Below, piece by piece: positions 18,307-43,785 of a DNA stretch of 50,851 nt (position 1 is the stretch's first letter; each line of letters begins with the position of its first letter). Source of the stretch: a bacterium (GTDB lineage: Bacteria > Sysuimicrobiota > Sysuimicrobiia > Sysuimicrobiales > Segetimicrobiaceae); assembly GCA_035295165.1 (NCBI GenBank), contig DATGJN010000017.1:1-50851 (forward strand), in the 5' to 3' direction. Below the pieces are notes generated by a model, which worked only from the letters and a program-made list of their open reading frames with translations, did not search any database and was not told the DNA's origin. A program made the position numbers and the translations under genes.

Positions 18307-20046
18307 CTACCCGGCGGGCGGGAACACGAGTTTGACAATTTCTTTCCGTACGCGTTCCAGTTCCTGGTCGGCAAGCGTCGTCGCGCGGTGCACTCGGTCG
18401 CGCATTATCCGGAACAAGAAATTCTTGAAGCCCATGTTCCGCATGGATTCCTCGTCTTTGCGTTCGAGAATGTCAGCCAACGAGAGCCCCTGGGGAATCA
18501 GATGGCGAAGGAGCTCAATCTCCTCAGCGGTGAGCAGCTGGAGCCGCGCTACATCTCTTCCCAGTTCAGTTGACCGGAGCAAATGAGCCCCACGGAGCGC
18601 CGTCTCGTACTCGTGCCAGACCAGATCCCCGTCTGGCATGGAGCCCAGTGTGACAATCACGGGATAGATTCGCCGAATCCGGCTCGGGTCTACGCCAGGC
18701 AACTGGTACTTGCCCGCAAGCAGGGCCTGGATGTTACGGTCGAGCTGGCGTGCGTTGTGAACGACAATCTTCTCGACATCTCGCTCAACCTCGTGCCGCG
18801 CAGCACGAATCTGAGTTTCTTCAAGTCGCGGACCTCCCACCGCAGCCTCGACCATGACGAGACGGTCCCCGCAGTCAATGGTGACGTCGGAGCTCTTGCA
18901 AAGCGCACGTTTATGCCACCGGTATGGTACCTCCCGGTGGACGCGGGGAGCAAGCGGGGTCAGCGTGCCACTGCTGTGCGCCGCGGCGAGCTTACGATAA
19001 ACGTACTCTTCAAACAGCTCCCCAAGAAACGGCGGCACATCGATCCCACTAGCCCTCCCGTGGTCACGGAGCCGCCAGAGCAAGCCGGTCGTGAACTTCT
19101 CCCGGAGGAAGCGGAGACTGAGAGGTAAGATCTTATCGCCGTACCGCACAAGCGGGAATTCGCGCATGGTGCGGAAACCGAAGGCGATACTTTCAGTACG
19201 GACGTGTTCGTGACGGAGCCGTACAGCGTACTCGTCGGCGGAGAGACTCGCAACCGCGCATATCCGGTCCCAGACGTCCGGAGTAAAGTTGGCAGCCGCG
19301 AAGTAGGCGCGCGGCGAGAGCATCAGCAATGGCTTCACCCGGTTTCGGAGACTGAGTTGGCCATAATGAACGATGAGCGCTGAGCCCGCGGCAAGGTAGG
19401 TCTTTATGTCGAGGCCATCATGCCGCTCCATAAGATCGCTGAGGTCGGCGCGGTGTTCCGCCCAGAGGGCAGGATCGCCCAGGAGGTCAACCAGCATGGC
19501 CCAGACACGCTGCAGCGCAGCCCCAGCATTCTCGCGGGCATGGAGCATCTCCATACGCAGAAGGTGTTGCAACAGCATCCAGTCGCGATCGCCAGGTCGG
19601 TCTGCCGGAGTCAGGTCGTCAAGATGATCGGCAATCGCCAGCAGCAGGCGGCCGAGATCACGCATTTCCATCTCGGTCACCGCCGCTTCGGCGACAGGAT
19701 CGGCGTAGAGAAGCGCGAGCTTCTCAAGGATCCAGATGGGTTGGTTCGCAAACGCAACAACGCGCGAGTGACGCAACTTCTCAGTGGCTGCCAGCCGTAG
19801 ATCTTCCGGAATCAATGCAGCGGTGAGTTCCGCCTGCGTGTCAGGTGCCAGTTCGCCGTCGTTTTCGAGGGTAGCATCTACCGTCGCGAGGAACGTCAGG
19901 GCTGCTTGCTGGCTATGCCGCCTCAGGGAACGGGTGATTTCCTCCCACGACATCCTGGCAGCGCCCAGGGAACCGAGCGATAACGTCTGATATAGATACG
20001 CAGTTTCGACGAGGCGACGATGCGCTGGTGTGGCGAGCTGCGGCAC
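18307..20046 (-). CDS. Unknown 579-aa protein, possible PD-(D/E)XK-like C-terminal domain
   Basis: A soluble 579-aa protein that I cannot assign to a family. The N-terminal 350 residues are mostly alpha-helical (for example WEEITRSLRRHSQQAALTFLATV and LGRLLLAIADHLDDLTP). Residues about 380-405 read SSDVTIDCGDRLVMVEAAVG, which resembles the D-(x)n-E-x-K strand pair of PD-(D/E)XK nucleases (D387, E400), but the expected Lys is replaced by Ala402. It may be a degenerate or divergent nuclease-like fold; this is weak. The start is GTG 20046, with GGAGGT seven bases upstream. It is divergent from the nuclease-helicase-ATPase genes at 21431-33699, with a relic gene in between, and could be their partner or a separate island gene. 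Confidence 0.7.
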   Translation of the reverse strand: MPQLATPAHRRLVETAYLYQTLSLGSLGAARMSWEEITRSLRRHSQQAALTFLATVDATLENDGELAPDTQAELTAALIPEDLRLAATEKLRHSRVVAFANQPIWILEKLALLYADPVAEAAVTEMEMRDLGRLLLAIADHLDDLTPADRPGDRDWMLLQHLLRMEMLHARENAGAALQRVWAMLVDLLGDPALWAEHRADLSDLMERHDGLDIKTYLAAGSALIVHYGQLSLRNRVKPLLMLSPRAYFAAANFTPDVWDRICAVASLSADEYAVRLRHEHVRTESIAFGFRTMREFPLVRYGDKILPLSLRFLREKFTTGLLWRLRDHGRASGIDVPPFLGELFEEYVYRKLAAAHSSGTLTPLAPRVHREVPYRWHKRALCKSSDVTIDCGDRLVMVEAAVGGPRLEETQIRAARHEVERDVEKIVVHNARQLDRNIQALLAGKYQLPGVDPSRIRRIYPVIVTLGSMPDGDLVWHEYETALRGAHLLRSTELGRDVARLQLLTAEEIELLRHLIPQGLSLADILERKDEESMRNMGFKNFLFRIMRDRVHRATTLADQELERVRKEIVKLVFPPAG

Positions 20047-20868: not shown

Positions 20869-21430
20869 AAGATCCGGATTCCGGGGGGCCGTCCCGCCAG
20901 GCGGCCCCGCGCGACGCGTCGCGGGGACCATCCCGACTCACGATGTGCGCGGCCTGTGGGCCGGTAGCCACGCGGACAACATGCGCGATATGTGGGAGAA
21001 GCGTCGGCAGAGGATGTCCGCATCGATCGCGGCGCTCGTCCGGGAAGCGGCGTTGTGCGTCACGCCGACCGGCCGGGAGGAACGGCTGGCTTAACCTCGA
21101 CGGCGCGCGGGGTCTGGGCTCCCGGCCCACGAGTTCACCACGCCCGCATCGCAGGGACAAAATGTGCGGAATCGCACAGATGATAACAAAGTTGTCGTCC
21201 GTCTGATTGGACGATTCGATGGACGAAATGCGCCGCGGGGCCGGCGAGGGTTACCGCACAAGGAGTTCCTGATGTGGGAGGGGTAGTGAGCACGTGAAAC
21301 ACCCTGAACGGGCTGGGAGGTCCCACCATCCTGGAACGTGCACAGATACGGGACGGCGTCGGGCCCGGACGGGGTCTAGCCCCGGCGGGACGACTCTCGT
21401 GCTGTTGTGGCTTGGGAGGCGGGAAGCACG
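20869..21430. other. Leader region of the nuclease-helicase-ATPase genes
   Basis: About 560 bases without a gene. Long minus-strand frames here are Arg-rich shadows. It contains the palindrome at 21163-21178 and AT-rich TGATAACAAAGTTGTC (21181-21196), plausible promoter/operator territory for the operon to the right. Confidence 0.35.
21163..21178. promoter_or_regulatory. Palindromic site TGTGCG-GAAT-CGCACA
   Basis: A perfect 6-bp inverted repeat with a 4-base spacer, about 250 bases upstream of the PD-(D/E)XK gene. Its size and symmetry fit an operator for a dimeric regulator (the half-sites are loosely Crp/Fnr-like). No regulator gene is adjacent; function is inferred only from symmetry. 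Confidence 0.35.
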
Positions 21431-22312
21431 GTGGGTGACAGCAAGACAAGTGCGATCGACCCAACCCAAGCTCGTACTCACGCGCTGAACGTCGAGGGAG
21501 TATTTTTTCAGCAGCGGGTCGCCGACGTGGTCCAGGAAGCAGGCTGGACGATCACGGCTCAAGAACATCCGGTGGCCTTTCCTAAGGGGAATGGGCCCTT
21601 CCCGGGTCGCGAAGGACGGTTGGACATCCGGGCTGAGCGCGGTTCCCAAGGCTACCGAATCATTCTCGCGATTGAGTGTAAGAAGTCCGACCAAAGTTAC
21701 AAGGATTGGGTCTTCTTTCCGGATCGGTCGGAAGAGATCAGGGCTCCAGTTGCCTACCCTGTACTGACGAGCGAAACCCCTGGTTCGACGACCGCCGGCT
21801 CGAAGTGGCGCCTGAGCACCGAGATCCGCCCATTTACTGCCGGAGTCGTTTGCATCGACGCCCGGGAACTCAAAGCGGAGTTCGGCAAACCAGATTCGTG
21901 GAAATCTTCGACGAAGCGCATTGAGGATGCCTGCTACCAAGCGACGCAAGCCGTTCAAGCATTGTTCGGCGACATCGTGGAACGTCAAAATCACCTTCTA
22001 GCAGCCGGAATGGAACCGGAAGTAGGGGCCTGGGTGATCCCGCTGGTTGTGACGACCGCAAATCTCTTCCTGTGTCGCTTCACGCCGAAAGCAGTTTCTT
22101 TGGACACCGGTGAAGTCGATTGGATGCGGGTACGATACGAGCCGGTCGATGCCACCGTGCTGGAGTATCCGCTGCCAGTTCACTTGCAGCTGCCCCCGGC
22201 CGAACCGTTGAAAACGGACCCGAGAACCGTCACGAAGAAGCACGTCTTCGTGGTACGAGGTGCATCTCTTTACGTGTTCCTGCAGCGAGCGGATCTGGGG
22301 GTTCGTCCTTGA
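21431..22312 (+). CDS. PD-(D/E)XK nuclease domain protein
   Basis: A 293-aa soluble protein. Residues about 25-90 form a restriction-endonuclease-like core: an N-terminal helix (FFQQRVADVVQEAGWTITAQE), then GREGRLDIRAE (D65) and YRIILAIECKKSDQSYKDWV with E82-x-K84. That is the classic D-(x16)-E-x-K metal site, so it is likely an active DNA- or RNA-cleaving nuclease. The rest (about residues 130-293) is an unassigned alpha/beta region (VIPLVVTTANLFLCRF, then VFVVRGASLYVFLQ), perhaps for substrate recognition. The GTG at 21431 is chosen for its purine-rich leader (GGGAGGCGGGAAGCACG); a GTG at 21407 is possible. It lies 169 bases before the giant helicase gene on the same strand and probably belongs to the same unit. 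Confidence 0.82.
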   Translation: MGDSKTSAIDPTQARTHALNVEGVFFQQRVADVVQEAGWTITAQEHPVAFPKGNGPFPGREGRLDIRAERGSQGYRIILAIECKKSDQSYKDWVFFPDRSEEIRAPVAYPVLTSETPGSTTAGSKWRLSTEIRPFTAGVVCIDARELKAEFGKPDSWKSSTKRIEDACYQATQAVQALFGDIVERQNHLLAAGMEPEVGAWVIPLVVTTANLFLCRFTPKAVSLDTGEVDWMRVRYEPVDATVLEYPLPVHLQLPPAEPLKTDPRTVTKKHVFVVRGASLYVFLQRADLGVRP

Positions 22313-22481
22313 GTGCGCCAGCCAGATGGCAAACTGAAATAATCGAAGTCTAGTGTTACACGACTTTGGGCAACTCAAGCGATTGGATGTTCCTGAACTG
22401 TAAGCCTCAGGTTGCCCTCAGAGGGTGGAGTGTCCCGATGACTACAAGACGCCACGTGTGCGCTAGGCGCAAACGTTGGCG

Positions 22482-25400
22482 ATGAACGCCCTCACCGCAT
22501 TGTTGACCGAGCTTCTTCTTGCTAGTCCAGCGGGGGTCACGGTCCCTCAACTCCGCCGGCGGCTGCGCGAGCACGGCCGCGGCATGACGGAGCAACAGAT
22601 CGAGTACGCTCTCCGGCGCGGCCTCTTTACCGAACTCAGTGGCCACTGGTATGTCCAGGGCCATGAACCGATTGAGGAGGCCACGGGCGACCATGCATCT
22701 GAACCGGCTAGGAACCCGATCCCCGTGTCCGTGCTCTGTCTCCCCCGAACAGCCGAGCACTACGCTGTGCTCGACATCGAGACAACGGGCATGGTCAAGG
22801 GCACGGACCGAGTTATTCAGATCGCGGCCTTTCGGGTCCACCACGGGCATCTGGAGTGCGAGCCTCTCGTAACGTACGTCAACCCGGCAGATCGCGAGAT
22901 CGCACCTGAGCTTCGAGATAAGCTTGGCATTGTCGCCGGCGGACCTGTGGAGGTCGCGATGCGGTCAGCGCCGCCCCTGCAGGTTGTGTGGCCCCGTGTC
23001 CAATCCATGCTCCAGGATCTTCCGGTTGTCGCCCACAATGGGGTTGACTTCGACCTGCCCTTTCTGGAGGCGCACGTCGGCCCGATCCCCAATCAGTGTA
23101 TCGATACGTGGGAGCTCGTGCACTTGGCGCGACCGGACCTCACTGATCGTACGCTCGGTGCACTCATCGACTCCCTTGAGCTCTCTTGTCCTGCCAAAAT
23201 CCGCGAGCACTCAACTCGATCGGACTACCATGACGCGCTGTACGATGCTGGGTGCACGTGGGCGCTGTTCGACGCGCTAGTCGAGGCGCTACGGGCGCTG
23301 CCTGACGACGATCGAGCTGTGCTGGCGTACCTCCTCCCTGAATGGAGCTCGTTCCTGCGGGTGCGAGGCGACGTCACGCGCGTGGAGGCTGTGTTGACCC
23401 CGCCGCGGCGTGCAGATTTCAGCGGCACGATGGTCGGTGCAGGCTCGGTACTTCCTGAACTTACGCCACAGGCGGTGGCGGAAGCGTTCGAGATGTTCGT
23501 GACCCGCACCGGGCGAGATGCGCGCCCCTCGCAGGTTGCGATGGTTCGCCATGTCGCCGACGCACTGGTGAATGGACGGGCGAAGCTCATTGAGGCACCG
23601 ACCGGGACTGGCAAGAGCCTCGCCCTCGGCTTCCCCGCCGCCCTCTTCGCGCTGCAAACGGGACAGCAGGTCGGCATCGCTACGCGTACCCACATTCTTC
23701 AGACGCAATTGCTGGATGACCTAACTCAGCTCAGGGAGCAATCCGGGTATCCGTTCCGTTTCCAGGTTGTCAAAGGGCGAGAGAATTACCTGTGCCTCAC
23801 GCGGTTGGAGCGCCTCGTCCGGGATCTCGATCCGGTAAAAACCCCTTCAGATGAGCGGTTCCTTGTAGCCTACCTCGTGCGGTGGGGCACCGTGGCTAGT
23901 GCTTCCGGGAACACGGGCGATCTGGACGACCTGTCCTTTCGTCTGCGAGAGCGATTCCCCATTTTCTCGACCCTTGTCGGGCAGGTCCGCGCGCTCGAGC
24001 ACAGTTGTCCGACCAGCACCTGCGGCCGGTACCGCGGGTGCTTCTGGGGAGCTGTTCGGCGCGCCGCTGAGACGGCTCACGTGCTCGTTCTCAACCACGC
24101 GCTATGGCTCCAAGCTGACCGCAGCCAGGTGCCCCATCTCCTGATCGATGAGGCCCATGGGTTCGAAGACGCGGCGACGGAAGCGCTCCAAGAAGAAGTT
24201 GGCACGGAGACGATCGGGTATGCGCTTTCGCAGATCCTGTATCCGGGGGACCGGTTGGGCCTGCTGGTGCGGCTTCAGGCCGCAGTGCGGCCTGGTTCCA
24301 CACTGACTCGTCTCATCTCATCGGCGTTCCGCAAGGTGCGTGTGGCGAGGCAGCAGCTCGGCGAGATTGGCGTACTGCTCCTCGAGTTCGCGCGCCACAG
24401 TGGGCGCGAGGTGAGCGAACTATACGGCGTCACGCTCAGAATCCGTCGTGACCTTCGGAATCAGTATGCGCAGCGGTGGGATCGCATCGATGCGGCGCTA
24501 GCTCACCTCAGAACAGTTTGTCTACTTGCGCTCGCCGAGGATCTTAGGCAGATTCGCGAAGGCCTGGACGTCGCTGCTGACGCTGGCCGTTATCGGGGCG
24601 ATCTGTTCGCGCTGCAGCAGGCGGTCGAGAATGAAGCCGCCCGGCTCGAAGTCCTTCCGCGTGCTGATTCTCGGCGCAACGTGTACTGGCTGCATGTCGA
24701 TCCCCGCCGGGACGATCCACCAAGCTGGGCCTTTCGGTCCGCACCCATCTCGGTCGCAGCCGACCTGCAACCCCGGTTCGCGCAGCTGACGTCGCTCGTT
24801 TTAACATCCGCTACGCTGACGATTGAACGGAATGACTTTACCCACTTCCGGGACCGGCTGGGCTTGCAGGATCGGGTGACTGATTCCGACCTCCATCCGC
24901 TTCCTCCCAACCTGCCTTACGAGAACGCGCTGCTCGTATTGACGCGTTACCTCAACCATATCCCGGCAGCCACATATGTGCCGGCGTTCACGGAGGAGGT
25001 AGCGCAGGAACTCACACACCTTCTCCGCTTCACTGGCGGCCGCGGTCTCGTGCTGTTCACTGCCCGCTACCGCATGGAGGGTGTGTTCGCCAAGATCACC
25101 GCGCCACTGACCGCTGATGGGGTCGAGGTTCTGGCGCAAGTTGCAGGTCAAAGCCGGGACCAACTCAAACGCCGCTTCCGAGATGTCGAGAGCTCGGTGC
25201 TCCTGGGTGTTCAGTCTTTTTGGGAAGGCGTAGATGTCCCCGGGCCGTCGCTGTCAATCGTGGTGATGGAGAAACTGCCATTCCCGTTCTTCGGCGACCC
25301 CGTTCTCGAAGCCCGGATGGAGGCGATTGAACAGGCGGGGGGGCGACCATTCGACGACTTCCTGTTCCCCCTTATGGCCCTGCGATTTAAGCAGGGATTC

Positions 25401-27869
25401 GGGCGACTGATCCGTACGCCCAGCGATCGCGGTGCGGTCCTGCTGCTGGACCGGAGGATTCACGGAAAATCCTATCGGGAGAGGCTTCTCAACTGCCTGC
25501 CAAATTTCACGCGCCGGCCCGAGGTGGAAGGGGACCGCCGGTCCACGTACGAGGCAGTCGCGCGGCACATACCGGCCATCATGCTAGGCCGAGACTTGGC
25601 CGCCCAACTTGGTCAGATCCCGGAAACCCTGCTCTCGGAGGTTGCCACCCGGCTCGAAACCTGGAACCTGGTAGGCCCCCTGACGGCGGACGCGTACGCG
25701 GCGCGCCGGGGCGAACTCCTCCAGCTCCTCCGCGACATCTTCGGCCACGAGGCGTTCAGGTCGGAGGAGCAGGAGGCCATCGTCCGGGAGTCATTGATGG
25801 GGCACGATATCTTGGCTGTGCTCCCGACCGGCGCCGGCAAATCGCTCGGCTTCCAGCTGCCGGCGCTCTTGCGGCGCGATCTTACGGTCGTGTTTTCACC
25901 GCTCATCGCACTTATGCGGGACCAGGTCGACCAACTACAGGGGCGGCGGATTGACCTTGTGGACGCGCTCACGAGTCATCTGCCGGCCGACGTGCGCGAG
26001 CATGTGTACCGGCGGGTCCGCGCCGGGCAAACGCGCCTCCTGTATTGCAGTCCTGAGCGGCTCCGCGATCCGTACTTGCAGGAGGTCCTGCGCGTAAGGC
26101 GCATCGCACAGGTGGTGGTCGACGAGGCGCACTGCGTCTCAATGTGGGGGCCCACGTTCCGGCCGGAGTACCGAGCGATCCCGACGATGTACCCGAACGG
26201 CGTGCAGCGTCCCCCTGTCGCAGCGCTCACCGCGACGGCAACACCGGCGATCGCCGAGGACATCACTAACGTGCTCGGCCTCCGGGATCCCACGGTCATC
26301 CGCACGTCGGTCGATCGCCCCAACCTCCGACTGATCGTCTATAATCGGCACGCCTGGTACTATCACGTCCGCAGCCGGCCGGACAAATTCCGCGTTCTCC
26401 TCCCAATTCTCCGTGCGGCCGATCGGCACGCTGACGCGGTTGTGGTCTATGTTGCAACCGTCCACGGCGCAGAGACGCTGGCGCGCCGGATCGCGTCAGC
26501 CGGATTCACTGTCCGAGCGTACCACGGTAAGATGGACGCCTTCGACCGCGCGGACATCCAGGACCAATTCATGGATGGCCTCGTCCCGATCATCGTGGCC
26601 ACGAAGGCGTTCGGTATGGGTATCGACAAGCGTGATATCCGCTACATCATTCACTACGATGTCCCTGGCGATCTCGAGAGCTACTACCAGGAGGTTGGGC
26701 GTGCCGGTCGGGACGGGGAGCCCGCCTACTGCGTTCTCCTCTACTGCCCTGCAGACGTGAAGATCCAGGAATACTTCGCCGACCAGGGTCAGATCGATTT
26801 CTCGAAACTCAGAGCCCTCACGGCCGCGCTGCGGGCTAGGCTGGCCGAAGGGCAGCTGGTCGACCTCCAGGAACTCGCCGAGGAAGTGGACCTTGAGGAG
26901 ATCCCCCTTGAGGTGGCCTTAACTCATCTGGAGAACCGCGGCCTGATCCGGCGGGAGGTAGATGTCACCCGGGAAGCGATCCTCACTGTCCAGACCGACC
27001 GTCGCACGCTGGAGACCCTTCTGGAGCGCGGGGACGAGTACGCCGGCCTCGAGGCGCTCCTGCGGACGGGTGTGCTCCGGCCGTATCAGCGTCAAGTCAT
27101 GTATATACTCCCGCTGGCGCACGCGGCAGGGCTGGCTCCGGCCGATCTGGACCGGTTGCTCGTGCGCCTTGCACTGGACCAGCACGTGATCTACAGACCT
27201 TATGGACGGGTAGCGTCGATCGTGCCGGGTCCAACCTGGCAGTCCTACGACCCGGCAGTTGAGTCGCCAGATGCGGCCGTGGTGGCGGGGGCCTACCGGA
27301 AGCTGCGCCAGATGATCGCTTATGCCGAGGCTCGACCCGATCAGTGCCGTCGCCAGCGCTTGCTCACTTACTTTGGAGAAACTCTCGCCACCCCGTGCGG
27401 AGCGTGCGATGGATGCAATCCGCGCCTTGGCGTCCCCTGGGCGGACCTGCGGATCGAGGACGTCCCCAATCCGTCGGTGCTGTTCGACCTCCCGACCGTG
27501 TGGATCGAGACGATCCAGGCCAACATGGACCTGGAAAAGGAAGGGCGGCAGCCGTACAGTGGGAAGACGCTAGCGCACATCCTGGAAGGCAACGACTACG
27601 CCTTGGTGAATCGGTACCCTCCCGACGAGCGCCGACGGCGCCAGCGGCATCTCCACCGGTTCCCGACGTGGGCGGCGCTCGCGACGCTCCGGCCTCGCCG
27701 CAGGTTGCAGAAAACCTATGAGCGGTTACTGCGAGAGGGATTCATCCGTGAGGAACAACGCTCGCTTCGCAGTAGCTCCGACACCTATCTCGTGCCGGTT
27801 GTGACGGAAAAGGGAGCGGTCGTTCTTGCCGATGGCAAGCCGCTGAACTGGGAGCACGTAGGAGAGTAG
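22482..27869 (+). CDS. DEDDh exonuclease - DinG-type helicase - RecQ helicase fusion (1795 aa)
   Basis: A giant three-enzyme fusion. Residues 1-60 look like a winged helix. Residues about 93-270 are a DnaQ-like 3'-5' exonuclease: LDIETTG (D98, E100), HNGVDFDLP (D189) and H250-x4-D255. Residues about 340-1080 are a DinG/XPD-type superfamily 2 helicase: EAPTGTGKS Walker A (K378), Fe-S cluster cysteines C438, C509, C514 and C520, DEAH at 556-559, and the C-terminal QSFWEGVDVPG and RFKQGFGRLIR motifs. Residues about 1085-1660 are RecQ: LPTGAGKS (K1120), DEAHC at 1214, ATKAFGMGIDK and YYQEVGRAGRDGE, with zinc-binding C1622, C1639, C1642 and C1645. A C-terminal wing-like region follows. All key residues are present. 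DnaQ-DinG fusions are known; the added RecQ is unusual. The ATG at 22482 is chosen; a TTG lies two codons upstream. Confidence 0.95.
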   Translation: MNALTALLTELLLASPAGVTVPQLRRRLREHGRGMTEQQIEYALRRGLFTELSGHWYVQGHEPIEEATGDHASEPARNPIPVSVLCLPRTAEHYAVLDIETTGMVKGTDRVIQIAAFRVHHGHLECEPLVTYVNPADREIAPELRDKLGIVAGGPVEVAMRSAPPLQVVWPRVQSMLQDLPVVAHNGVDFDLPFLEAHVGPIPNQCIDTWELVHLARPDLTDRTLGALIDSLELSCPAKIREHSTRSDYHDALYDAGCTWALFDALVEALRALPDDDRAVLAYLLPEWSSFLRVRGDVTRVEAVLTPPRRADFSGTMVGAGSVLPELTPQAVAEAFEMFVTRTGRDARPSQVAMVRHVADALVNGRAKLIEAPTGTGKSLALGFPAALFALQTGQQVGIATRTHILQTQLLDDLTQLREQSGYPFRFQVVKGRENYLCLTRLERLVRDLDPVKTPSDERFLVAYLVRWGTVASASGNTGDLDDLSFRLRERFPIFSTLVGQVRALEHSCPTSTCGRYRGCFWGAVRRAAETAHVLVLNHALWLQADRSQVPHLLIDEAHGFEDAATEALQEEVGTETIGYALSQILYPGDRLGLLVRLQAAVRPGSTLTRLISSAFRKVRVARQQLGEIGVLLLEFARHSGREVSELYGVTLRIRRDLRNQYAQRWDRIDAALAHLRTVCLLALAEDLRQIREGLDVAADAGRYRGDLFALQQAVENEAARLEVLPRADSRRNVYWLHVDPRRDDPPSWAFRSAPISVAADLQPRFAQLTSLVLTSATLTIERNDFTHFRDRLGLQDRVTDSDLHPLPPNLPYENALLVLTRYLNHIPAATYVPAFTEEVAQELTHLLRFTGGRGLVLFTARYRMEGVFAKITAPLTADGVEVLAQVAGQSRDQLKRRFRDVESSVLLGVQSFWEGVDVPGPSLSIVVMEKLPFPFFGDPVLEARMEAIEQAGGRPFDDFLFPLMALRFKQGFGRLIRTPSDRGAVLLLDRRIHGKSYRERLLNCLPNFTRRPEVEGDRRSTYEAVARHIPAIMLGRDLAAQLGQIPETLLSEVATRLETWNLVGPLTADAYAARRGELLQLLRDIFGHEAFRSEEQEAIVRESLMGHDILAVLPTGAGKSLGFQLPALLRRDLTVVFSPLIALMRDQVDQLQGRRIDLVDALTSHLPADVREHVYRRVRAGQTRLLYCSPERLRDPYLQEVLRVRRIAQVVVDEAHCVSMWGPTFRPEYRAIPTMYPNGVQRPPVAALTATATPAIAEDITNVLGLRDPTVIRTSVDRPNLRLIVYNRHAWYYHVRSRPDKFRVLLPILRAADRHADAVVVYVATVHGAETLARRIASAGFTVRAYHGKMDAFDRADIQDQFMDGLVPIIVATKAFGMGIDKRDIRYIIHYDVPGDLESYYQEVGRAGRDGEPAYCVLLYCPADVKIQEYFADQGQIDFSKLRALTAALRARLAEGQLVDLQELAEEVDLEEIPLEVALTHLENRGLIRREVDVTREAILTVQTDRRTLETLLERGDEYAGLEALLRTGVLRPYQRQVMYILPLAHAAGLAPADLDRLLVRLALDQHVIYRPYGRVASIVPGPTWQSYDPAVESPDAAVVAGAYRKLRQMIAYAEARPDQCRRQRLLTYFGETLATPCGACDGCNPRLGVPWADLRIEDVPNPSVLFDLPTVWIETIQANMDLEKEGRQPYSGKTLAHILEGNDYALVNRYPPDERRRRQRHLHRFPTWAALATLRPRRRLQKTYERLLREGFIREEQRSLRSSSDTYLVPVVTEKGAVVLADGKPLNWEHVGE

Positions 27870-27873
27870 AGAA

Positions 27874-30800
27874 ATGGCGTGGACCGAACTCCACAAGATC
27901 GGCGCCAACCCCGTTGGGATTGTCGCCGAACATCTGCATGGCTACGTCGGCTTCCTGGCTCTTGCGAAAGAACTCATTCAAAACGCCGACGACGCCGGGG
28001 TGACCACTCGGGACGCCCGGGGTGGCCGCTACGGGGCCAAAACTGTGCGGTTCCGTTTCTTCTCAAATCGTGTCGAGGTCAACAATGATGGGCCGCCGTT
28101 TGACGAGGCTGACCTCAGGGCGATCGCCGAGATCAATTCCGGGCACAAACAGCGCACCGAGCGCGCCGCCGGATATTTTGGAGCAGGGTTTGGCGCAGTG
28201 TACTCCATCACCGACACGCCTGAGATCCGCTCCAACGGGCGCCGAGTCCGTCTGAACTGGGAGCGAATGGTACTGGAGTGTGATGCCGATCTCGAACCCG
28301 ATGGGAAGTGGACGAGCATCATTCTGCCGTTCCGGCGTGATCGGACCTCGGTGCTGGCCAGATTCTCCCAACAGGCTGCGGTGGTCGAGCCTCACCAAGA
28401 ACGCCAGTTTGAGCGCGTGCTCCGCGCGCACCTAACCGAACTGTTATTGTTCTTGCGCAATGTCCGGGCCATCGAAGTCTACATCGAAACACTCCCCAAG
28501 TCACCAACCTGGGTGGCCTTCAGAAACGGTGACACCGTGACCCTCTCCAAGTACGACCCTCGGAAGAACGCCCTTGAGGTACTAAGCACCCAACGCTGGT
28601 TCCACGCCGCCGACACTTTCGCCTCAGGATCCGAAGGCGTCGGCATTGCCCGGTCGCGTGAAGTGGAACTTGCGGTCGTGCTCTCGACAAACGCTCCGGA
28701 TGGTCTCCTCTATAGCGTGCTCCCTTTAGACCTCAAACTCGGATTCAAGATGATGCTGAACGGGCACTTCATTCCAGATCCCACGCGGAGACATGTTGTC
28801 GAAACAGGTCCAGGCGGCGGAGCTTGGAACCGGGCCGTGATCGAGGCGCTCGGGAAACTCATCGTTACCAACGTCGAGCGATTGCGGGACGCGTTGCTTG
28901 AGGCGATGGATGGCGACGGCGGAAAGGCGGCCGCTGCGCTGTACGCCGCTCTCCCACTCGACGAACGCACCATCCTTGATCTGTTCCGGGAACCAGCCCA
29001 GCGTGTCCACGAGGCGCTCACCCGCATGGCTGTTCTGCCCGATCACCGGAACCGATGGCAGATCCCGCGCAACGTGTACTGGGTAGACCCGCAGCAGGCC
29101 GAGCGGAAGATCGCGGCACAGTGCGAGAGTCTCCCAATCGTCCACTCAGGGCTAACCAATCGCCAACTGCGCTACGTATATGACGCCCTCGGCGTCCCGC
29201 AACTCACGCGTAAGGATCTGCTATCCTACCTCAGCAGCATCCTCACGCCGGGCTTTCAGGCCCTCGACGGCAATCATCCGTTGGTTGGTACTCGTAACCG
29301 GCTTGAGGATCTGATCCGGTACGTCCTCTCGCAGGAGAACCGGAGCGAAGACTGGGCCCGCGTGCGCATACTCCCCTGCATCCCCGATCGTCGGCGCCGG
29401 CTCACGTCTCCGACCGACTTGATCGTGCCTACGGATGAAGACCAACCGGCCGTGGAGGTGCTATTGAAGCTCCAACATGCCGACCTGTCGACTCCTGATA
29501 GTGAACGAACGTGCGACCTGCTCGAGCCTCACCGGGCGGAACTCAAACTGTCCGGATTGACGGTATCGAGGATTCTCGCGGTTCTCGTGCGCGCGCTCCC
29601 GCCGGGCCCCCTGAAGCCGCAGGAGCTTGGGTGGACTGTCGGCGACCTGCAGGTTCTCTATGACCACCTCCAGCGGGCGTGGATCGATAACCAAACGGCG
29701 GTGCGAGAAGACCTCCGGCGACTCCAGATGGTTCCTGTGTGGCTGACCCAGGACGGCTCCCTCCGTGCGTCGACACTGAACCACGCGCTCCGCGTGAAAG
29801 GTAGCGAGTCCCTCCCCAGCTTCCTACCGGTTGACGATGTCATCCACGCGGAGTTCTCCACGGGTGACATGCGGACGTTCCTCCGGAGCGGTGTCGGGTT
29901 CAGCGAGCTAGGAACCCACGAGTTTATCCGGGACTACCTCCTCCGCCAGTGGCCGGACCTCACTGACAAGGTCCGGCACGAGGCGCTGAGGTGGCTCCGC
30001 GAGGCCCACATGGACAACCGGTTGGTCGTCCCAGGCCAACCGTCGCTGACCGACCAGCTGCGTCAAGCCCAACTTGTTCCGACCAAACAGGGCGACTGGC
30101 GCCGGGGTGCCGACGTGTTCTTCCCGAGCCCCTGGCTGACGGATATTGTCGGGCCTCAGGCGCCCGTGATCGACCCCAAGGTGTCGCCCAAGATCACGCC
30201 CGAACTAAGGAGATCCAGATCCCACGAGAAGGTCCCCGACCCCCTTCGGTGGGAGCGTTTTTGGCACCTATTGGACGTTCAGCGCTTTCCTTCCACGTCG
30301 GACCTTGTTGCGGTCGTAGATGAGTGCCTGGTAACCCCTGAACCCGAGCGCCGCACGCGGATCCAAACTGTTGTCCACGGCCTGGACCGCATGGTGGAGG
30401 ACTTGCGTCACGAAGATGACTGGGGCGAGATCCTCCAGACCCTCACCACCGGTCTCGAGCCCCTACAGAAACTCCACTGGATCCCTGCGGAGGGTCGCAC
30501 AGACCTAATGCGGCCCAGGGATGTCGCACCTCCCTTCCAGAGACTCCGAGAGCTCGCCGGACACGGACTGCTCTTCACCGATGTGCGCTTCTTGCCGGAC
30601 AGCGTCCTCCCCGACCTGCTCAAGTTTCACACCGAAGTCGACGTGGCGGAAGTGCTAGCGCATCTCGACGCTCTCGCATCGACAGGGGCGCCACCATCTG
30701 CGAAAGTCTATCAGTGGTTGGCCGAGCACCGCCAGGATTTGCCCAGGAAGAAGGACCTGTCCGATCGCTTCCTGATCTATGAGAACGGCCGATACTACCG

Positions 30801-33699
30801 CCCGCGCGATCTGCTCCTGGTCGAAACGGGTGATTTCGGGGACTACCGGCCGGTTATTCCGGAAAGCGCGCCAAGCCAGCTCAAGGATTTGTATCGAGCG
30901 CTCGGCGCCCGATCGATCATTGAGGCCACGGACTACCTTGATGTGCTCGAGGAAATCGCGGCCAAAGCAGCCAAGAACCCTATACCGCCAGACCAAGGAG
31001 ACGAGTCCGTCATCCGGTCGGCGTATCGCTGGTTGGCTAGGGCAGCGGCCGAGCGCAAACTGCCCCAATCCGCCGAGCTTCACCGTCGCCTCATTCTCAC
31101 CCAGGACGGCCGTCTCGACTTTCCGGACAAGACCCTTTGGGAGGACAATCCCCATTGGGGCGCGCTCGCCAAGGTCGCTGCCCCACAATTTTGCCGCCTT
31201 CGCGATGCCACGTTCCTCCCATGGTACCTTGCCGCAGGTGTCCGACCGCTGACCTCCGCAATGCGCCGGGAACTGGAGCGTGCCGAAGGCGAGCAACCGG
31301 CCCCTGACATATCCACTCGGCTCAGGGCACGGTGGCCATTCCTCCGTCGGATCATCCTTCACTTCGGCGGAGCGCCGGAGAAATGCGAGGATTGGCTATC
31401 GGGACTCCAAACATTTCTGGCCACACGTCTGCAAATCAAAGGGAGTATCGAGGGACTAGGGGGCTTCAGCAGTACCGAGGAGCTCGCCTGGGTCGAGTCG
31501 GAGGGCGATCCCGCTCGCCTGGTCATCACACCCGGATATGAGGGGCTTGCGGCAGGAGGCCAGTGCGTAGGGGAAGTACTGCTGCAGAAGGCCGGCCTCG
31601 GCGCGTGTGTTGAAGGCGCGTTGTTCATCCAGATCATCGCCCGCGTTGTGGAAGCGCCTGAAGAAGGAGCGCTAGGTCACGTTCTGGACGTCTCCGGGGT
31701 GCGCCGAGACGGCGTTGCGCTGCCGAAACTGCACCAGCAGACCCGGTACCTCACCATACCGGTCCTCGAGTCGGAACCGGCACCCTCCAAACCGGTCGCC
31801 ACGTTCCCGGAACCAGAGCCAGCAGACTCCCAGGGCCCATCCGGGGCAACTGATGGGGTGCCGCACCGGACGGTTGAGGTTGAGGCGGACATAGCGGATG
31901 GGCGCGTAACCGCGCCGCAGGCGGGCTCATCGATGCCCGCGGAACAAGAGAACGAACGGGTCCGTCAGAGGCGCGGCTCCACCGCGCCGCTCGCTCCTGA
32001 AACACTCTCCCCGACAGACGGGAAGGAACCTCAATTCGAGCCAACTACGCCGCATCCATCGCCGTCGCTGGCTGGAAGGCGGACAGACGCCCGCGCACCG
32101 GTGAAACCGAAGCCGGCGTGGACAGGGGTGAGCGCGCGCTACGAGGGCAACGTACGCCTCCAGGCTCCGCGCGGCACCAACAATGCACTGCGAGCGCTAG
32201 GGTACCACCTCGATCAGGACAAGAAGGAGCTTGAGGAAAGGATCACGGCCGCGGAAACAGCGCAGCCAGAGACCGGGGTTGTTACGATAGTGCTGCGGGC
32301 GGAGGCCCTCTATCTGGGTGTAATCGAGCTGCCCGATGCAGCAGAGAAACTTTGCCCGCTAGACCGGTCCGAGTTTCGGTTGACGACCCAACTGGATAGG
32401 AGGGGGGTCACCGTTAAGCTCGACCGGGCACGGCACGTCCTGTTCAACCAGACCGACTTGCCGCACTTCCTATGGGCCCATGATTGGCCACCCGGTACCA
32501 TTCTCACCCTCTCGCGCACGGGAACTTTTGATGAGTTCGAGCTGCGTACGCGCCCAGCCGAGTGTGTCATCAAGAACGTTATACGCTTCACACCGGACGA
32601 GCGCGGGGCCCCACGATCGCATACCGATCCCGAGGTGCGCTTCCATATCCAGGTTGACGAAGACGTCTATCGGTCGGCACGACGCTGGGAGGAGCTCGAG
32701 CTGATGACCCAGCCGGTGGACGAGGGAGTGATCACGGCGATCGTGCACGTCTTGCAGGATCACGCCGCGCATGGCGAGATCGTTGTGAACGAGTCAACCC
32801 TCAGGCACGAGGTCTTTGCAAGGCGTCGCTGTTCCTATGCGTCGGTGGCGATCGCGCTGCGGCAACGCCCGCACGTCTTCGAACGTGTCGGCACGCAGGG
32901 ATGGCGGCTCCTGCCTCCTCGAGAGCGCCCAGTGTTCTCTCATGCGACCGCCCCCGCCAACAACGAAGCGCCTGCGCTAGCGCCAGCCGGCCCGGCAGAT
33001 GACAGCGAAGCCATCGTGCCTTGGTTGAACAGGGCGCGGGCACGCATGAGCACTTGGGCCGAACATGTGGACCCGCGCCTGGCGCTCCAGGTACTCCGTC
33101 CTATGCTCCAGCAACTCAGCCACTTGGTCCGACAACTGGAAGATGTCTTGGCGGTGCCGGAGCGTTCACGACGTGAACCTCCTGTGCAACCAGCTCTTCA
33201 AGCTTCCCCACCGTCTGTGGAGGCGGAGCCACCTGGTACGCCACTCCTTACGCTCGCGGAACGCCTCAAGACGCTGAGGAAGGTCGATGCGCGTGATCCC
33301 GCAACCGTTGTCCGCGTCCTGAGAGGCGTCGCAGAGGCCGTGGGGGGATCACGGGCACACGCCACGGCTGCCGTCCTCTACTTGGTCGTTGCACGGCTGG
33401 AGGCCGGGTTCGGGCTGGGGACCAAGGACGCCGTTGCGTCCCTGCGGTGCGCCGAGCAGCATCTCGAATTGGCTTCGCTCCGCCAAGCCGCGGTCGCGGT
33501 GCACGCGGCGGCCGAGCGTGTCGGGCAGGGTGTAATGTGGCCCGGGACAGGCCCGCGTTCGGGACCAAATGCGCAACAAGTCCGCGAGAAAGGGTGCGTC
33601 GGCATGTGGTGGCTGGCCGCCCACACTGCGAACCGCGAACTGTTCGATACTCACTTGAGGGCAGCTCTCGCGGTCGTGGATCTTCCTGCGGCGCGCTAA
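27874..33699 (+). CDS. Sacsin-like Hsp90/GHKL ATPase domain protein (1941 aa)
   Basis: A very large protein whose first 200 residues are a sacsin-type GHKL ATPase: GYVGFLALAKELIQNADDAG (N-box, E33 and N37, D39/D40), VEVNNDGPPFDEADL (D72, G73) and GYFGAGFGAVYSITDTPEI (glycine-rich ATP lid). Sacsin-like regions bind ATP and couple it to conformational change. About residues 200-1300 are repetitive alpha/beta sequence without a clear family. About 1300-1420 is a Pro/Glu-rich disordered linker. A beta-rich segment (about 1420-1580) and a winged-helix-like region (about 1615-1680) follow, then a helical C-terminus. The ATG is 4 bases after the helicase stop, with GGAGAG overlapping the helicase's last codons, so the two are translationally coupled. 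No nuclease motif is seen in this protein. Confidence 0.9.
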   Translation: MAWTELHKIGANPVGIVAEHLHGYVGFLALAKELIQNADDAGVTTRDARGGRYGAKTVRFRFFSNRVEVNNDGPPFDEADLRAIAEINSGHKQRTERAAGYFGAGFGAVYSITDTPEIRSNGRRVRLNWERMVLECDADLEPDGKWTSIILPFRRDRTSVLARFSQQAAVVEPHQERQFERVLRAHLTELLLFLRNVRAIEVYIETLPKSPTWVAFRNGDTVTLSKYDPRKNALEVLSTQRWFHAADTFASGSEGVGIARSREVELAVVLSTNAPDGLLYSVLPLDLKLGFKMMLNGHFIPDPTRRHVVETGPGGGAWNRAVIEALGKLIVTNVERLRDALLEAMDGDGGKAAAALYAALPLDERTILDLFREPAQRVHEALTRMAVLPDHRNRWQIPRNVYWVDPQQAERKIAAQCESLPIVHSGLTNRQLRYVYDALGVPQLTRKDLLSYLSSILTPGFQALDGNHPLVGTRNRLEDLIRYVLSQENRSEDWARVRILPCIPDRRRRLTSPTDLIVPTDEDQPAVEVLLKLQHADLSTPDSERTCDLLEPHRAELKLSGLTVSRILAVLVRALPPGPLKPQELGWTVGDLQVLYDHLQRAWIDNQTAVREDLRRLQMVPVWLTQDGSLRASTLNHALRVKGSESLPSFLPVDDVIHAEFSTGDMRTFLRSGVGFSELGTHEFIRDYLLRQWPDLTDKVRHEALRWLREAHMDNRLVVPGQPSLTDQLRQAQLVPTKQGDWRRGADVFFPSPWLTDIVGPQAPVIDPKVSPKITPELRRSRSHEKVPDPLRWERFWHLLDVQRFPSTSDLVAVVDECLVTPEPERRTRIQTVVHGLDRMVEDLRHEDDWGEILQTLTTGLEPLQKLHWIPAEGRTDLMRPRDVAPPFQRLRELAGHGLLFTDVRFLPDSVLPDLLKFHTEVDVAEVLAHLDALASTGAPPSAKVYQWLAEHRQDLPRKKDLSDRFLIYENGRYYRPRDLLLVETGDFGDYRPVIPESAPSQLKDLYRALGARSIIEATDYLDVLEEIAAKAAKNPIPPDQGDESVIRSAYRWLARAAAERKLPQSAELHRRLILTQDGRLDFPDKTLWEDNPHWGALAKVAAPQFCRLRDATFLPWYLAAGVRPLTSAMRRELERAEGEQPAPDISTRLRARWPFLRRIILHFGGAPEKCEDWLSGLQTFLATRLQIKGSIEGLGGFSSTEELAWVESEGDPARLVITPGYEGLAAGGQCVGEVLLQKAGLGACVEGALFIQIIARVVEAPEEGALGHVLDVSGVRRDGVALPKLHQQTRYLTIPVLESEPAPSKPVATFPEPEPADSQGPSGATDGVPHRTVEVEADIADGRVTAPQAGSSMPAEQENERVRQRRGSTAPLAPETLSPTDGKEPQFEPTTPHPSPSLAGRRTDARAPVKPKPAWTGVSARYEGNVRLQAPRGTNNALRALGYHLDQDKKELEERITAAETAQPETGVVTIVLRAEALYLGVIELPDAAEKLCPLDRSEFRLTTQLDRRGVTVKLDRARHVLFNQTDLPHFLWAHDWPPGTILTLSRTGTFDEFELRTRPAECVIKNVIRFTPDERGAPRSHTDPEVRFHIQVDEDVYRSARRWEELELMTQPVDEGVITAIVHVLQDHAAHGEIVVNESTLRHEVFARRRCSYASVAIALRQRPHVFERVGTQGWRLLPPRERPVFSHATAPANNEAPALAPAGPADDSEAIVPWLNRARARMSTWAEHVDPRLALQVLRPMLQQLSHLVRQLEDVLAVPERSRREPPVQPALQASPPSVEAEPPGTPLLTLAERLKTLRKVDARDPATVVRVLRGVAEAVGGSRAHATAAVLYLVVARLEAGFGLGTKDAVASLRCAEQHLELASLRQAAVAVHAAAERVGQGVMWPGTGPRSGPNAQQVREKGCVGMWWLAAHTANRELFDTHLRAALAVVDLPAAR

Positions 33700-35033: not shown

Positions 35034-35108
35034 TGGCTCGGCGCGCGACGGTAGCGCACCTGAATGGGGTTCAGGTGGTCGGCGGTTCAAATCCGCCCGG
35101 CCCGACCA
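35034..35108 (+). tRNA. tRNA-Pro(GGG)-like sequence, probable prophage attachment site
   Basis: The 3' two-thirds are a normal tRNA: anticodon stem CCTGA/TCAGG with loop ATGGGGT (anticodon GGG), variable loop TGGTC, T-arm GGCGG-TTCAAAT-CCGCC, acceptor strand CGGCCCG, discriminator A and encoded CCA (35106-35108). The 5' part is poor: acceptor TGGCTCG pairs with one mismatch and two G-U pairs, position 8 is G instead of T, and the D-loop (GACGGTA) is short. It is therefore either a chimeric tRNA or a 3' tRNA fragment. The integrase gene ends 8 bases beyond the CCA, which fits an att site in the tRNA 3' end. Confidence 0.65.
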
Positions 35109-35115
35109 TATTTCA

Positions 35116-36300
35116 CTAGGGTTTCCGCGCATCGACCTGTTCCCCTGTCGCGTCTGGTGCCGTCCTGGTGCCGTTCTTGGTGCCGCTGAGCAGCCTATCC
35201 AGCTGCTCGCCGACCCCCTGAAACGCCGACGGCATCAGGTGTCCGTAGGTGTTGAGGGTCGTCGTGATCGACGTATGCCCGAGCCGTGCTTGGATCGCCT
35301 TCGGGTGGACGTTGGCGGCGATCAACAGACTGGCGTGCGTGTGCCGCAGATCATGGAACCGAACCATCGGCACCCCGGCAAGCGTGAGGTGCCGAGTGAA
35401 TGTGCGGTCGACGTTGTCCGGGTCCAGCGGTGCGCCGTCACGATTGCGGAAGACGTAATCGTCCTCCACGTCGCTCCCGGGCAGATCCAGCAGGACAGGG
35501 CGGGGGACATCGATGACGCGCCGGGACGCGGCCGTCTTGAGCGGCCCCTCCACAACGCGATAGACGTCGCCATCCTTGACGCGCCCCCGAGTCCGACGGA
35601 CGTGAACGCGGGCGTTGCGCAGATCGACCTGCGACCAGTGGAGCGCCAATAGCTCGCCCCGTCGCATCCCGCTGTAGATTGCGAGCTGATAGAGACTTCG
35701 GAAGGGTTTTTGGGCGATGTCGAGCAGTCGCCCGATCTCGTCCGGCCGGAGTATCTGCAGGCGCTCCCCGTCCACCCGGTCGGGCGCGCGCAGCGGTCGC
35801 ACGAGGGCGGCGGGGCTCTCAGTCAGGTGTCCCTGGTCGACCGCGTCCTTGAGAATGAACTTGAGAACGTGGAGCGCGTAGTTGACGGTCGTCGGGGAGA
35901 GGGGAACCCGACGCTTCTTCTTGCCGCGCCGCGTGCCGGTCTCCGCGAGCGCAGTCACGAAGTCCTCGACGTCACGTCGGCTGATCGTCCCGAGTCGCGA
36001 CTCGCCGAAGCGAGGACGCAGGTGCACGTTCACGGTCCCCTCGTACGACTCCAGCGTCTTCGGCTTTAGCCCCCGCGCCCGGCCGCGCCGCAGCCAGTCG
36101 TCAGCGAAGTCTCCGAAGCGCGGCGTCTGCGCGGGCGCGATCCGATGCACGCCGAGCACCGCCTCAGCCTCGCGCTGCTCGAGGATCCGGCGGGCCAACC
36201 GCTCGCCGCCGTTGATGAGTTGCCGCACCCGGCGGCCGGTCGCGTCCACAAAGTCGATCTGATGCGCGCCACGATCGGCCCGATAGCGTACCGTGCCCAT
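35116..36300 (-). CDS. int: Tyrosine recombinase / phage integrase
   Basis: A 394-aa integrase. The N-terminal region is the arm- and core-binding part (FADDWLRRGRARGLKPKTLESYEGTVNVHLRPRFG, SAM-like core-binding domain at about 62-160). The catalytic domain is at about 183-365: R213 in SGMRRGELLAL, K255 in GPLKTAASRR, H316 and R319 in FHDLRHTHASLL, H342 in LGHTSITTTL and Tyr352 in NTYGHL. All catalytic residues are present. The gene's 3' end abuts the tRNA-Pro-like sequence, the usual position of a phage integrase at its attachment site. The small RHH-like gene lies directly upstream. Confidence 0.95.
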   Translation of the reverse strand: MGTVRYRADRGAHQIDFVDATGRRVRQLINGGERLARRILEQREAEAVLGVHRIAPAQTPRFGDFADDWLRRGRARGLKPKTLESYEGTVNVHLRPRFGESRLGTISRRDVEDFVTALAETGTRRGKKKRRVPLSPTTVNYALHVLKFILKDAVDQGHLTESPAALVRPLRAPDRVDGERLQILRPDEIGRLLDIAQKPFRSLYQLAIYSGMRRGELLALHWSQVDLRNARVHVRRTRGRVKDGDVYRVVEGPLKTAASRRVIDVPRPVLLDLPGSDVEDDYVFRNRDGAPLDPDNVDRTFTRHLTLAGVPMVRFHDLRHTHASLLIAANVHPKAIQARLGHTSITTTLNTYGHLMPSAFQGVGEQLDRLLSGTKNGTRTAPDATGEQVDARKP

Positions 36301-42631: not shown

Positions 42632-42985
42632 TCACGTCCCCTGTAAGAATTGCTCCCAGCTCATTCCGCTCCAACTCAGCGACGGGGGCGGCGGGATCGG
42701 TGGAAGCGGAGGGACCGGCTTGACTGGTGGAAAGTGAGGAAGAGGAGGGATCGGTGGCACTTTTGTGCGCGGCAAGAGAACGCCTGATGCGCCTGGAATG
42801 AACGCGACGGTCGCGCCATGCTTGTTGCGAAAGAGACCGTGACTGAATGTTCCCAAGTACGTAGCCGCGTAAGAGAATACTGCTCCATTGTAGACAAGAG
42901 CGCGATGTCTGGCGTGGTCGTCAAGGATTCGGTCGTCATCTAGCCAACCCACCGGCGATCCGGACCGGTCGAAGATCGGGATCAT
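42632..42985 (-). CDS. 4-fold beta-flower domain protein
   Basis: A 117-aa protein. Its first 70 residues contain repeated short beta-hairpin units of the 4-fold beta-flower type: FDRSGSPVGWLDDDRI, ALVYNGAVFSYAATYLGTFSHGLFRNKHGATVAF. A Pro-rich tail follows (PPIPPLPHFPPVKPVPPLPP) and a short SWEQFLQ end. Beta-flower domains have unknown function. Its ATG overlaps the stop of the HEPN gene by 4 bases, so the pair is translationally coupled. Confidence 0.7.
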   Translation of the reverse strand: MIPIFDRSGSPVGWLDDDRILDDHARHRALVYNGAVFSYAATYLGTFSHGLFRNKHGATVAFIPGASGVLLPRTKVPPIPPLPHFPPVKPVPPLPPIPPPPSLSWSGMSWEQFLQGT

Positions 42986-43785
42986 CTTGCGCCGAGTCCG
43001 CTGAGCTGATTGTTAATTGCCCGCAGCAGATCTTCGCTCGCTTGAAGGAGCGCGTTGGCGTCGGCAGCCATTCGCGGTCTGGTTCGCATGTTTCGCACTC
43101 TGCCGGCTGCCTCCAGATTAACATCAAGGTCGTGGATAATCTTGTTCCGCACCCGAAAGATATCCCTAAGATCCTCGAAATTCGTTCCGAGGTCTTCCCG
43201 AGTAAGCCCAAAGGCGGCGGCTATCCGAGACAGTTCCTCCGCCGACTGAAGGCTACCGGCAGTAAGATCCTCGACATACAGTGCGACCGCACGGCTTGGT
43301 AGGTCGGACGCCGATAACAACCCGGCCACGAACCTTGCTGATCTCCCAGCAGTGATCGACTGCACGTCGACGGCGAACTGCCGAGCGAGAAACTTCTCTA
43401 GCTCCGCTCTCGCCCTGCTGTTGCGGTGTGCAATGAGAGGGAGCGCATCGCGAATCAGCTGCTTCGTCATCGCGTCAAGCCCAGCGGCCGCCATCACGAG
43501 CATTGCTCGCAGGACATCCTGCTCCTCGTCCGTAGTCATACCCACCCTAGCCGTTCGCCTTCCGCGCGGCGTTCTGAGCAGATCGAATGCTTTTAGAAGC
43601 GCGGCGGCAGACTCGTGGGTGCGCTCAAGTATCGTCCTAGCCTTTTCGCACGCCTGGTGGTCTACGTCGATTGCACGGAACACATGGATAGCCGTCGAGG
43701 CGGGAACGCGTCGCACGCGTGGCCGAGACTCCCGCGGAAGCCCGGCCGCGCGCGGCCTTCTCTCACCGGGATCGCCCGTGGTCAT
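42982..43785 (-). CDS. HEPN-domain-like protein (R-x4-H motif)
   Basis: A 267-aa alpha-helical protein. Residues about 85-230 fit a HEPN-type bundle, ending in DLRDIFRVRNKIIHDLDVN with R213-x4-H218, the catalytic R-x4-6-H motif of HEPN RNases (RNxxIH). HEPN proteins are frequent toxins or abortive-infection effectors. The N-terminal 40 residues are Arg-rich and may be non-native (a later start is possible). It overlaps the beta-flower gene by ATGA; the small basic protein gene lies 31 bases upstream. RNase activity is inferred from the motif only. Confidence 0.75.
   Translation of the reverse strand: MTTGDPGERRPRAAGLPRESRPRVRRVPASTAIHVFRAIDVDHQACEKARTILERTHESAAALLKAFDLLRTPRGRRTARVGMTTDEEQDVLRAMLVMAAAGLDAMTKQLIRDALPLIAHRNSRARAELEKFLARQFAVDVQSITAGRSARFVAGLLSASDLPSRAVALYVEDLTAGSLQSAEELSRIAAAFGLTREDLGTNFEDLRDIFRVRNKIIHDLDVNLEAAGRVRNMRTRPRMAADANALLQASEDLLRAINNQLSGLGAR

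What the first reader, a model, noticed from the sequence alone, without database searches (positions are those of the whole stretch)
21431..33699. Candidate undescribed defence locus: PD-(D/E)XK nuclease + exonuclease-DinG-RecQ fusion + sacsin-like ATPase
Three same-strand genes encode a nuclease with an intact D-E-K site, a 1795-aa protein uniting a DEDDh exonuclease, a DinG/XPD-type Fe-S helicase and a RecQ helicase, and a 1941-aa sacsin/GHKL ATPase. The last two are separated by 4 bp, with the ribosome-binding site inside the first. Helicase-nuclease pairs and GHKL ATPases occur separately in known anti-phage systems, but I do not recognise this trio. The setting (transposon, relic gene and prophage next door) is typical of defence islands. 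Defence function is an inference.
Basis: partly seen in the sequence, partly recalled or inferred. Interest (0 to 1): 0.88.

Follow-up and report, generated by a model that had tools for sequence, protein, structure and literature searches.

The report
Sacsin-like ATPase paired with helicase-exonuclease
A rare, horizontally acquired bacterial gene pair joins an ATPase related to a known anti-phage protein (TmtA/Tiamat) to an unusually large enzyme carrying a DNA exonuclease and two helicases; it is probably a new variant of a helicase-coupled anti-phage system, although the trio as described was found nowhere else.

Summary
The genes are real and their coordinates hold. The helicase gene (22476/22482-27869) is one intact DEDDh exonuclease-DinG-RecQ chain with all catalytic, Fe-S and zinc residues present. 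The sacsin gene (27874-33699) starts 4 bp downstream, with its ribosome-binding site inside the first gene. The upstream 'nuclease' (21407/21431-22312) is an orphan whose PD-(D/E)XK assignment rests on a motif alone.

The three-domain fusion was published in 2005 for Thermus thermophilus HB27 (PMC1274311), and colinear fusions occur on Thermaceae and Deinococcus plasmids. The sacsin protein matches PADLOC's TmtA (Tiamat defence) profile at 2e-103 but lacks the C-terminal NOV_C nuclease domain of most relatives.

Among 12 sacsin/TmtA relatives, 8 have a UvrD-type helicase within about 1.6 kb and 5 sit with Type I or III restriction-modification genes. None has the DinG-RecQ fusion. No second copy of the trio was found, but my sampling of chromosomes was poor. 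All three genes are absent from 42 genomes of the same phylum.

Best reading: an anti-mobile-element locus in which a Tiamat-like ATPase controls a single-chain bipolar helicase-exonuclease, a new variant of a sacsin-plus-helicase theme. Defence function is inferred, not shown; membership of the nuclease is uncertain.

The parts
27874..33699 (+). 1941-aa sacsin-like GHKL ATPase, TmtA (Tiamat)-related in residues 30-1200; C-terminal ~450 aa unlike known families; no NOV_C domain
   Evidence: Pfam SACS 2e-16; PADLOC TmtA PDLC03969 E=2e-103 over residues 80-1194; sacsin chains in PDB E~4e-5; NOV_C profile absent
22476..27869 (+). 1797-aa (1795 from ATG 22482) DEDDh exonuclease - DinG Fe-S helicase - RecQ helicase with Zn domain, in one chain
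   Evidence: colinear end to end with six Thermaceae/Deinococcus fusions
21407..22312 (+). 301-aa (293 from GTG 21431) orphan protein, possible PD-(D/E)XK nuclease (D73 / E90-x-K92); membership in the unit uncertain
   Evidence: no homologue in own phylum, plasmids or viral contigs; 169-bp gap to the next gene counted from ATG 22482
27860..27864 (+). ribosome-binding site AGGAG of the sacsin gene, inside the last codons of the helicase gene
   Evidence: read from the sequence

Best explanation
The helicase and sacsin genes form a translationally coupled two-gene anti-mobile-element locus, perhaps with the upstream nuclease as a third member. Proposed mechanism: the sacsin-like GHKL ATPase is the sensor and gate; ATP-driven closure recognises foreign or replicating phage DNA (or a phage-made structure) and licenses its partner. 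The partner is a single-chain machine with two motors expected to move in opposite directions (DinG 5'->3', RecQ 3'->5') and a DEDDh 3'->5' exonuclease, so it could unwind and trim invader DNA from an end, gap or fork, functionally like a RecBCD-type engine. The PD-(D/E)XK-like protein, if real and part of the unit, would supply the entry cut that relatives may get from their fused NOV_C domain. Shown here: genes, motifs, homology, gene spacing with the embedded ribosome-binding site, absence from relatives, and the defence context of relatives. Inferred: sensing, gating, polarity in this protein, DNA destruction, and anti-phage activity.
For: TmtA profile match E=2e-103. 4-bp gap with embedded RBS. 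Both helicase halves and the exonuclease intact and conserved. All three genes absent from 42 same-phylum genomes, and no other DinG or RecQ in the own genome. Sacsin relatives have UvrD-type helicases within about 1.6 kb in 8 of 12 loci, some overlapping or 2 bp apart, and Type I/III restriction-modification in 5 of 12. The fusion is strain-variable in Thermus (HB27 yes, HB8 no; PMC1274311), and recQ on pTT27 is 'highly permissive' and in the shell pangenome (PMC13140390). Fusions lie near CRISPR genes in HB27 and A. silvanus. A GHKL ATPase proposed to control a PD-(D/E)XK nuclease is known in VcSduA (PMC12137116).
Against: The sacsin + DinG-RecQ pairing was seen only in this genome (0 of 12 sacsin relatives; 0 of 6 fusion loci carry a sacsin gene). 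Chromosomal sampling was poor, because the genome-collection scan returned mostly generic DinG genes and the wider genome searches failed. The NOV_C domain found in most relatives is missing. The nuclease is unproven. No experiment exists.
Confidence: 0.55

Rival explanations
1. Two independent defence genes that happen to be adjacent: a stand-alone Tiamat-like ATPase next to a stand-alone ExoDinG-RecQ, in a defence island.
For: TmtA is treated as a one-gene system in PADLOC (my knowledge of its naming); the fusion occurs without sacsin in Thermaceae and Deinococcus with other partners; islands cluster unrelated systems.
Against: 4-bp gap with the RBS inside the upstream gene; helicases adjoin sacsin relatives repeatedly.
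Confidence: 0.25
2. A DNA repair or recombination operon rather than defence: ExoDinG-RecQ resolves replication stress and the sacsin ATPase acts as a chaperone.
For: ExoDinG of B. subtilis is implicated in replication stress and S. aureus DinG has 3'-5' exonuclease activity (PMC12525004, PMC12345164, abstracts); RecQ is a repair family.
Against: Absent from 42 genomes of the phylum; Thermus homologue is strain-variable and dispensable; sacsin relatives sit with restriction-modification genes.
Confidence: 0.12
3. A degraded or chance assembly with no joint function, the nuclease ORF being non-coding or unrelated.
For: No second instance; 21407-22312 has no homologue and the lowest coding signal of the three; transposase and prophage nearby.
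Against: The two large ORFs are 1797 and 1941 codons without a stop, with codon-position GC like genuine genes and invariant catalytic residues.
Confidence: 0.08

Closest known systems
Tiamat (TmtA), PADLOC PDLC03969
   Same: Sacsin-type GHKL ATPase at the N-terminus, alignable over ~1100 residues (E=2e-103); defence context of relatives
   Different: Only 20-22% identical to the four plasmid relatives aligned; lacks NOV_C (DUF3883) nuclease domain; different ~450-aa C-terminus; coupled to an ExoDinG-RecQ gene
DnaQ-DinG-RecQ three-domain fusion of Thermus thermophilus HB27 pTT27 (Omelchenko 2005, PMC1274311)
   Same: Same domain order, colinear from exonuclease to C-terminal tail, all catalytic residues shared (~30% identity)
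   Different: Thermaceae copies head a conserved four-gene run with a coiled-coil protein and two unknown proteins; no sacsin gene
Sacsin-NOV_C + NERD-UvrD or UvrD loci (L111, L194-L198)
   Same: Sacsin ATPase next to a DNA helicase, sometimes overlapping genes
   Different: SF1 UvrD helicase instead of two SF2 helicases; nuclease in NOV_C and NERD domains
VcSduA, Shedu with GHKL ATPase (PMC12137116)
   Same: GHKL ATPase proposed to control nucleic-acid cleavage
   Different: One chain, DUF4263 nuclease; no helicase
ExoDinG (PMC11981726)
   Same: N-terminal DEDDh exonuclease on DinG
   Different: No RecQ half; the review's ten subgroups do not mention a RecQ fusion

Membership tests
Tiamat (TmtA) | Sacsin-type GHKL ATPase with ATP-binding motifs | tested here: met
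   SACS and P_loop_sacsin above curated cut-offs; ELIQNADDA, NDGPP and GYFGAGFG conserved with relatives
Tiamat (TmtA) | Match to TmtA profile over most of its length | tested here: inconclusive
   345 bits, model positions 86-1167 of 1563; a full-length relative scores 1284 bits over 7-1562
Tiamat (TmtA) | C-terminal NOV_C (DUF3883) nuclease domain, present in seven of the relatives checked (L096, L111, L112, L194, L195, L197, L198) and encoded in L196 as a separate reading frame | tested here: not met
   No Pfam hit; hhalign of six NOV_C sequences finds nothing in protein 3 and only a non-significant match at the motif of protein 1. That NOV_C is defining is my inference from relatives
Tiamat (TmtA) | Single gene protects from phage | not testable with these tools
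   Needs an experiment
DnaQ-DinG-RecQ fusion (Thermus type) | Three domains in that order in one chain with intact active sites | tested here: met
DnaQ-DinG-RecQ fusion (Thermus type) | Thermaceae operon partners (coiled coil, ~180 aa, ~510 aa) | tested here: not met
   No homologue beside the locus in the window (the one match there, E=0.004, is a 56-residue stretch of an AsmA-family protein at 6418-8187)
Dpd system (DpdF) | DpdF above family cut-off, with DpdA and other dpd genes | tested here: not met
   PADLOC DpdF hit is the shared RecQ core; NCBIfam DpdF 228.8 bits against cut-off 550
Type IV CRISPR CasDinG | Csf4/CasDinG equivalog score | tested here: not met
   NCBIfam Csf4 86 bits against cut-off 400
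Shedu type I-D (VcSduA) | GHKL ATPase fused to DUF4263 nuclease | tested here: not met
   No DUF4263 match in proteins 1 or 3
Housekeeping repair operon | Conserved in close relatives | tested here: not met
   Absent from 42 genomes of the phylum
PD-(D/E)XK nuclease (protein 1) | Family profile or fold match | tested here: inconclusive
   Motif only; no profile or PDB hit; failed model

The most novel reading that the evidence does not exclude
A distinct defence system type: a Tiamat-like ATPase that has lost its own nuclease and gates a single-chain bipolar helicase-exonuclease (two SF2 motors of opposite polarity plus DEDDh nuclease), with a separate PD-(D/E)XK protein making the entry cut.
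Probability: 0.3. Interest if true: 0.65.

Novelty: new variant of a known kind. Interest (0 to 1): 0.48.

Why it matters
Tiamat's mechanism is listed as unknown (PMC10482375). If its ATPase normally works with a helicase, as the repeated UvrD neighbours suggest, and can swap it for an exonuclease-DinG-RecQ machine, that gives a direct hypothesis (ATP-gated DNA unwinding and degradation) that can be tested with existing phage panels. It also gives a possible role to the DnaQ-DinG-RecQ fusion, a known Thermus oddity since 2005 for which I found no assigned function.

Tried and rejected
Housekeeping repair: rejected on phyletic pattern. Dpd and type IV CRISPR: rejected on scores far below family cut-offs. 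Nuclease as a detached NOV_C: hhalign aligned only the D..ExK stretch, not significant. Structure of protein 1: failed (pLDDT 36) and fold matches meaningless. A shared winged-helix domain between proteins 2 and 3: no support. L016 and L082 looked like DinG+RecQ loci: in L016 the two genes are separate, lying beside histidine-biosynthesis genes; in L082 they are also separate genes. Clean empty site in same-genus G026: the flank is rearranged, so not shown. Terminator and promoter scans were at chance level.

Full report
Observation. The three ORFs are present at the stated coordinates. Protein 2 is one uninterrupted chain with RNase_T, DinG-type Helicase_C_2, DEAD/Helicase_C and RecQ zinc-binding domains. 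Every active-site residue that I could test is present and invariant in an end-to-end alignment with six homologues. Protein 3 has a SACS domain above the curated cut-off. The 4-bp gap and AGGAG within the preceding gene are in the sequence. The 301-aa protein is the weak part: its D-E-K motif in bare form is expected in 66% of shuffles, only a strand-framed version chosen after the fact is rare (0.17%), and no profile, PDB sequence or reliable model supports a nuclease. It has codon-position GC compatible with coding but the weakest of the three.

Phyletic pattern. The genome belongs to a small phylum with 43 genomes held. Proteins 1 and 3 have no match outside the own genome. Protein 2's fusion occurs in no other, and the own genome holds no other DinG or RecQ; most relatives show only weak (about 25-30%) matches in short (roughly 390-530 aa) frames of the DEAD-box kind, with separate DinG-like frames in G010 and G034. 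The set is therefore an acquired accessory locus.

What the fusion is. Plasmid searches found colinear DEDDh-DinG-RecQ proteins in Thermus, Meiothermus, Allomeiothermus and Deinococcus (regions). In the Thermaceae the gene heads a conserved run of four tightly packed genes with a coiled-coil protein of about 260 aa, one of about 180 aa and one of about 510 aa (38-66% identity between most genera for the last), none with a PADLOC hit of substance. In Deinococcus actinosclerus it follows a UvrD helicase. Omelchenko and colleagues described the HB27 protein in 2005 as a unique three-domain fusion, strain HB8 lacking the DinG and RecQ orthologs (PMC1274311). A 2026 Tn-seq study lists recQ on pTT27 as highly permissive and part of the shell pangenome (PMC13140390). 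The 2025 DinG review lists ten subgroups and does not mention RecQ (PMC11981726). So the architecture is known but its function is open.

What the ATPase is. PADLOC assigns protein 3 to TmtA at 2e-103, covering 86-1167 of 1563 model positions. A Microvirga relative matches the same model over its full length with 1284 bits and ends in NOV_C, a domain called a novel REase domain in PMC3710099 (under its name DUF3883). Protein 3 lacks NOV_C. I located 12 sacsin relatives that match protein 3's ATPase region at E < 1e-5: 4 on plasmids and 8 in viral contigs (L194-L201). Eight have a UvrD-type helicase within about 1.6 kb: L111 (2 bp), L194 and L195 (overlapping), L196, L197, L198, L201, and L096 by annotation. 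Five lie with Type I or III restriction-modification genes: L112, L194, L195, L197, L198. L195/L196 and L197/L198 are near relatives of each other, so independent cases are fewer. None has a DinG-RecQ fusion.

Synthesis. A sacsin ATPase next to a DNA helicase is a recurring arrangement in defence settings; this locus shows it with an exonuclease-DinG-RecQ machine as the helicase and without the fused nuclease. That supports a functional partnership of proteins 2 and 3, but the particular pair has one instance in my data. From established polarity (DinG 5'->3', RecQ 3'->5') the fusion could drive along both strands of a duplex like RecBCD; this is inference. A GHKL ATPase joined to a nuclease, with both activities needed for protection, has a tested precedent in VcSduA, whose authors propose that the ATPase controls the nuclease (PMC12137116). 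I rate defence as the most likely function (about 0.8, summing the joint and independent readings) and joint action of proteins 2 and 3 at 0.55; the nuclease's membership is near even.

Limits. The one scan of the 85,000-genome collection returned mostly ordinary DinG genes, because its peptide patterns were short stretches of this protein that include helicase motifs. Searches centred on other phyla failed (calls listed under rejected). The statement 'not found elsewhere' therefore covers the own phylum, 72,556 plasmids, 50,697 phages for protein 3, the viral contigs reached by short conserved patterns, and 56 further genomes tested for protein 3, not bacteria at large.

Noticed in passing
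L090:12058-19924, L091:12040-20023, L093:11743-19714, L094:11806-19891: Thermaceae megaplasmids carry a conserved run of four tightly packed genes led by the DnaQ-DinG-RecQ fusion (plus coiled-coil, ~180 aa and ~510 aa proteins), no match of substance to defence profiles, near CRISPR genes in two cases: a candidate undescribed system.
   Followed up: partly
window 35034-36300: tRNA-Pro(ggg) directly abutted by a tyrosine integrase on the minus strand; a prophage (terminase at 47941-49305) extends to the right, so the ATPase/helicase locus lies outside it.
   Followed up: partly
window 18307-20046 (-): 579-aa protein of unknown family, divergent from the locus; no Pfam, PADLOC, NCBIfam or plasmid match; has a D..E-A-A stretch reminiscent of a degenerate PD-(D/E)XK core.
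   Followed up: partly
window 44750-47767 (+): Eco57I-like methylase (weak Pfam match) of lower GC (56%) inside the prophage, on the opposite strand to the terminase: likely cargo restriction-modification.
   Followed up: no
window 42982-43785 (-): Weak HEPN_RiboL-PSP match (E=0.002) in the prophage.
   Followed up: no
L194:6418-19101: RadC-like gene, UvrD helicase, sacsin-NOV_C and Type III methylase/restriction genes run on one strand, closely packed: another sacsin-helicase defence cluster in a viral contig.
   Followed up: partly
L196:9941-14748: Sacsin ATPase (1043 aa) and NOV_C (544 aa) lie in two consecutive ORFs where L195 has one 1593-aa ORF; a split or a frameshift.
   Followed up: no
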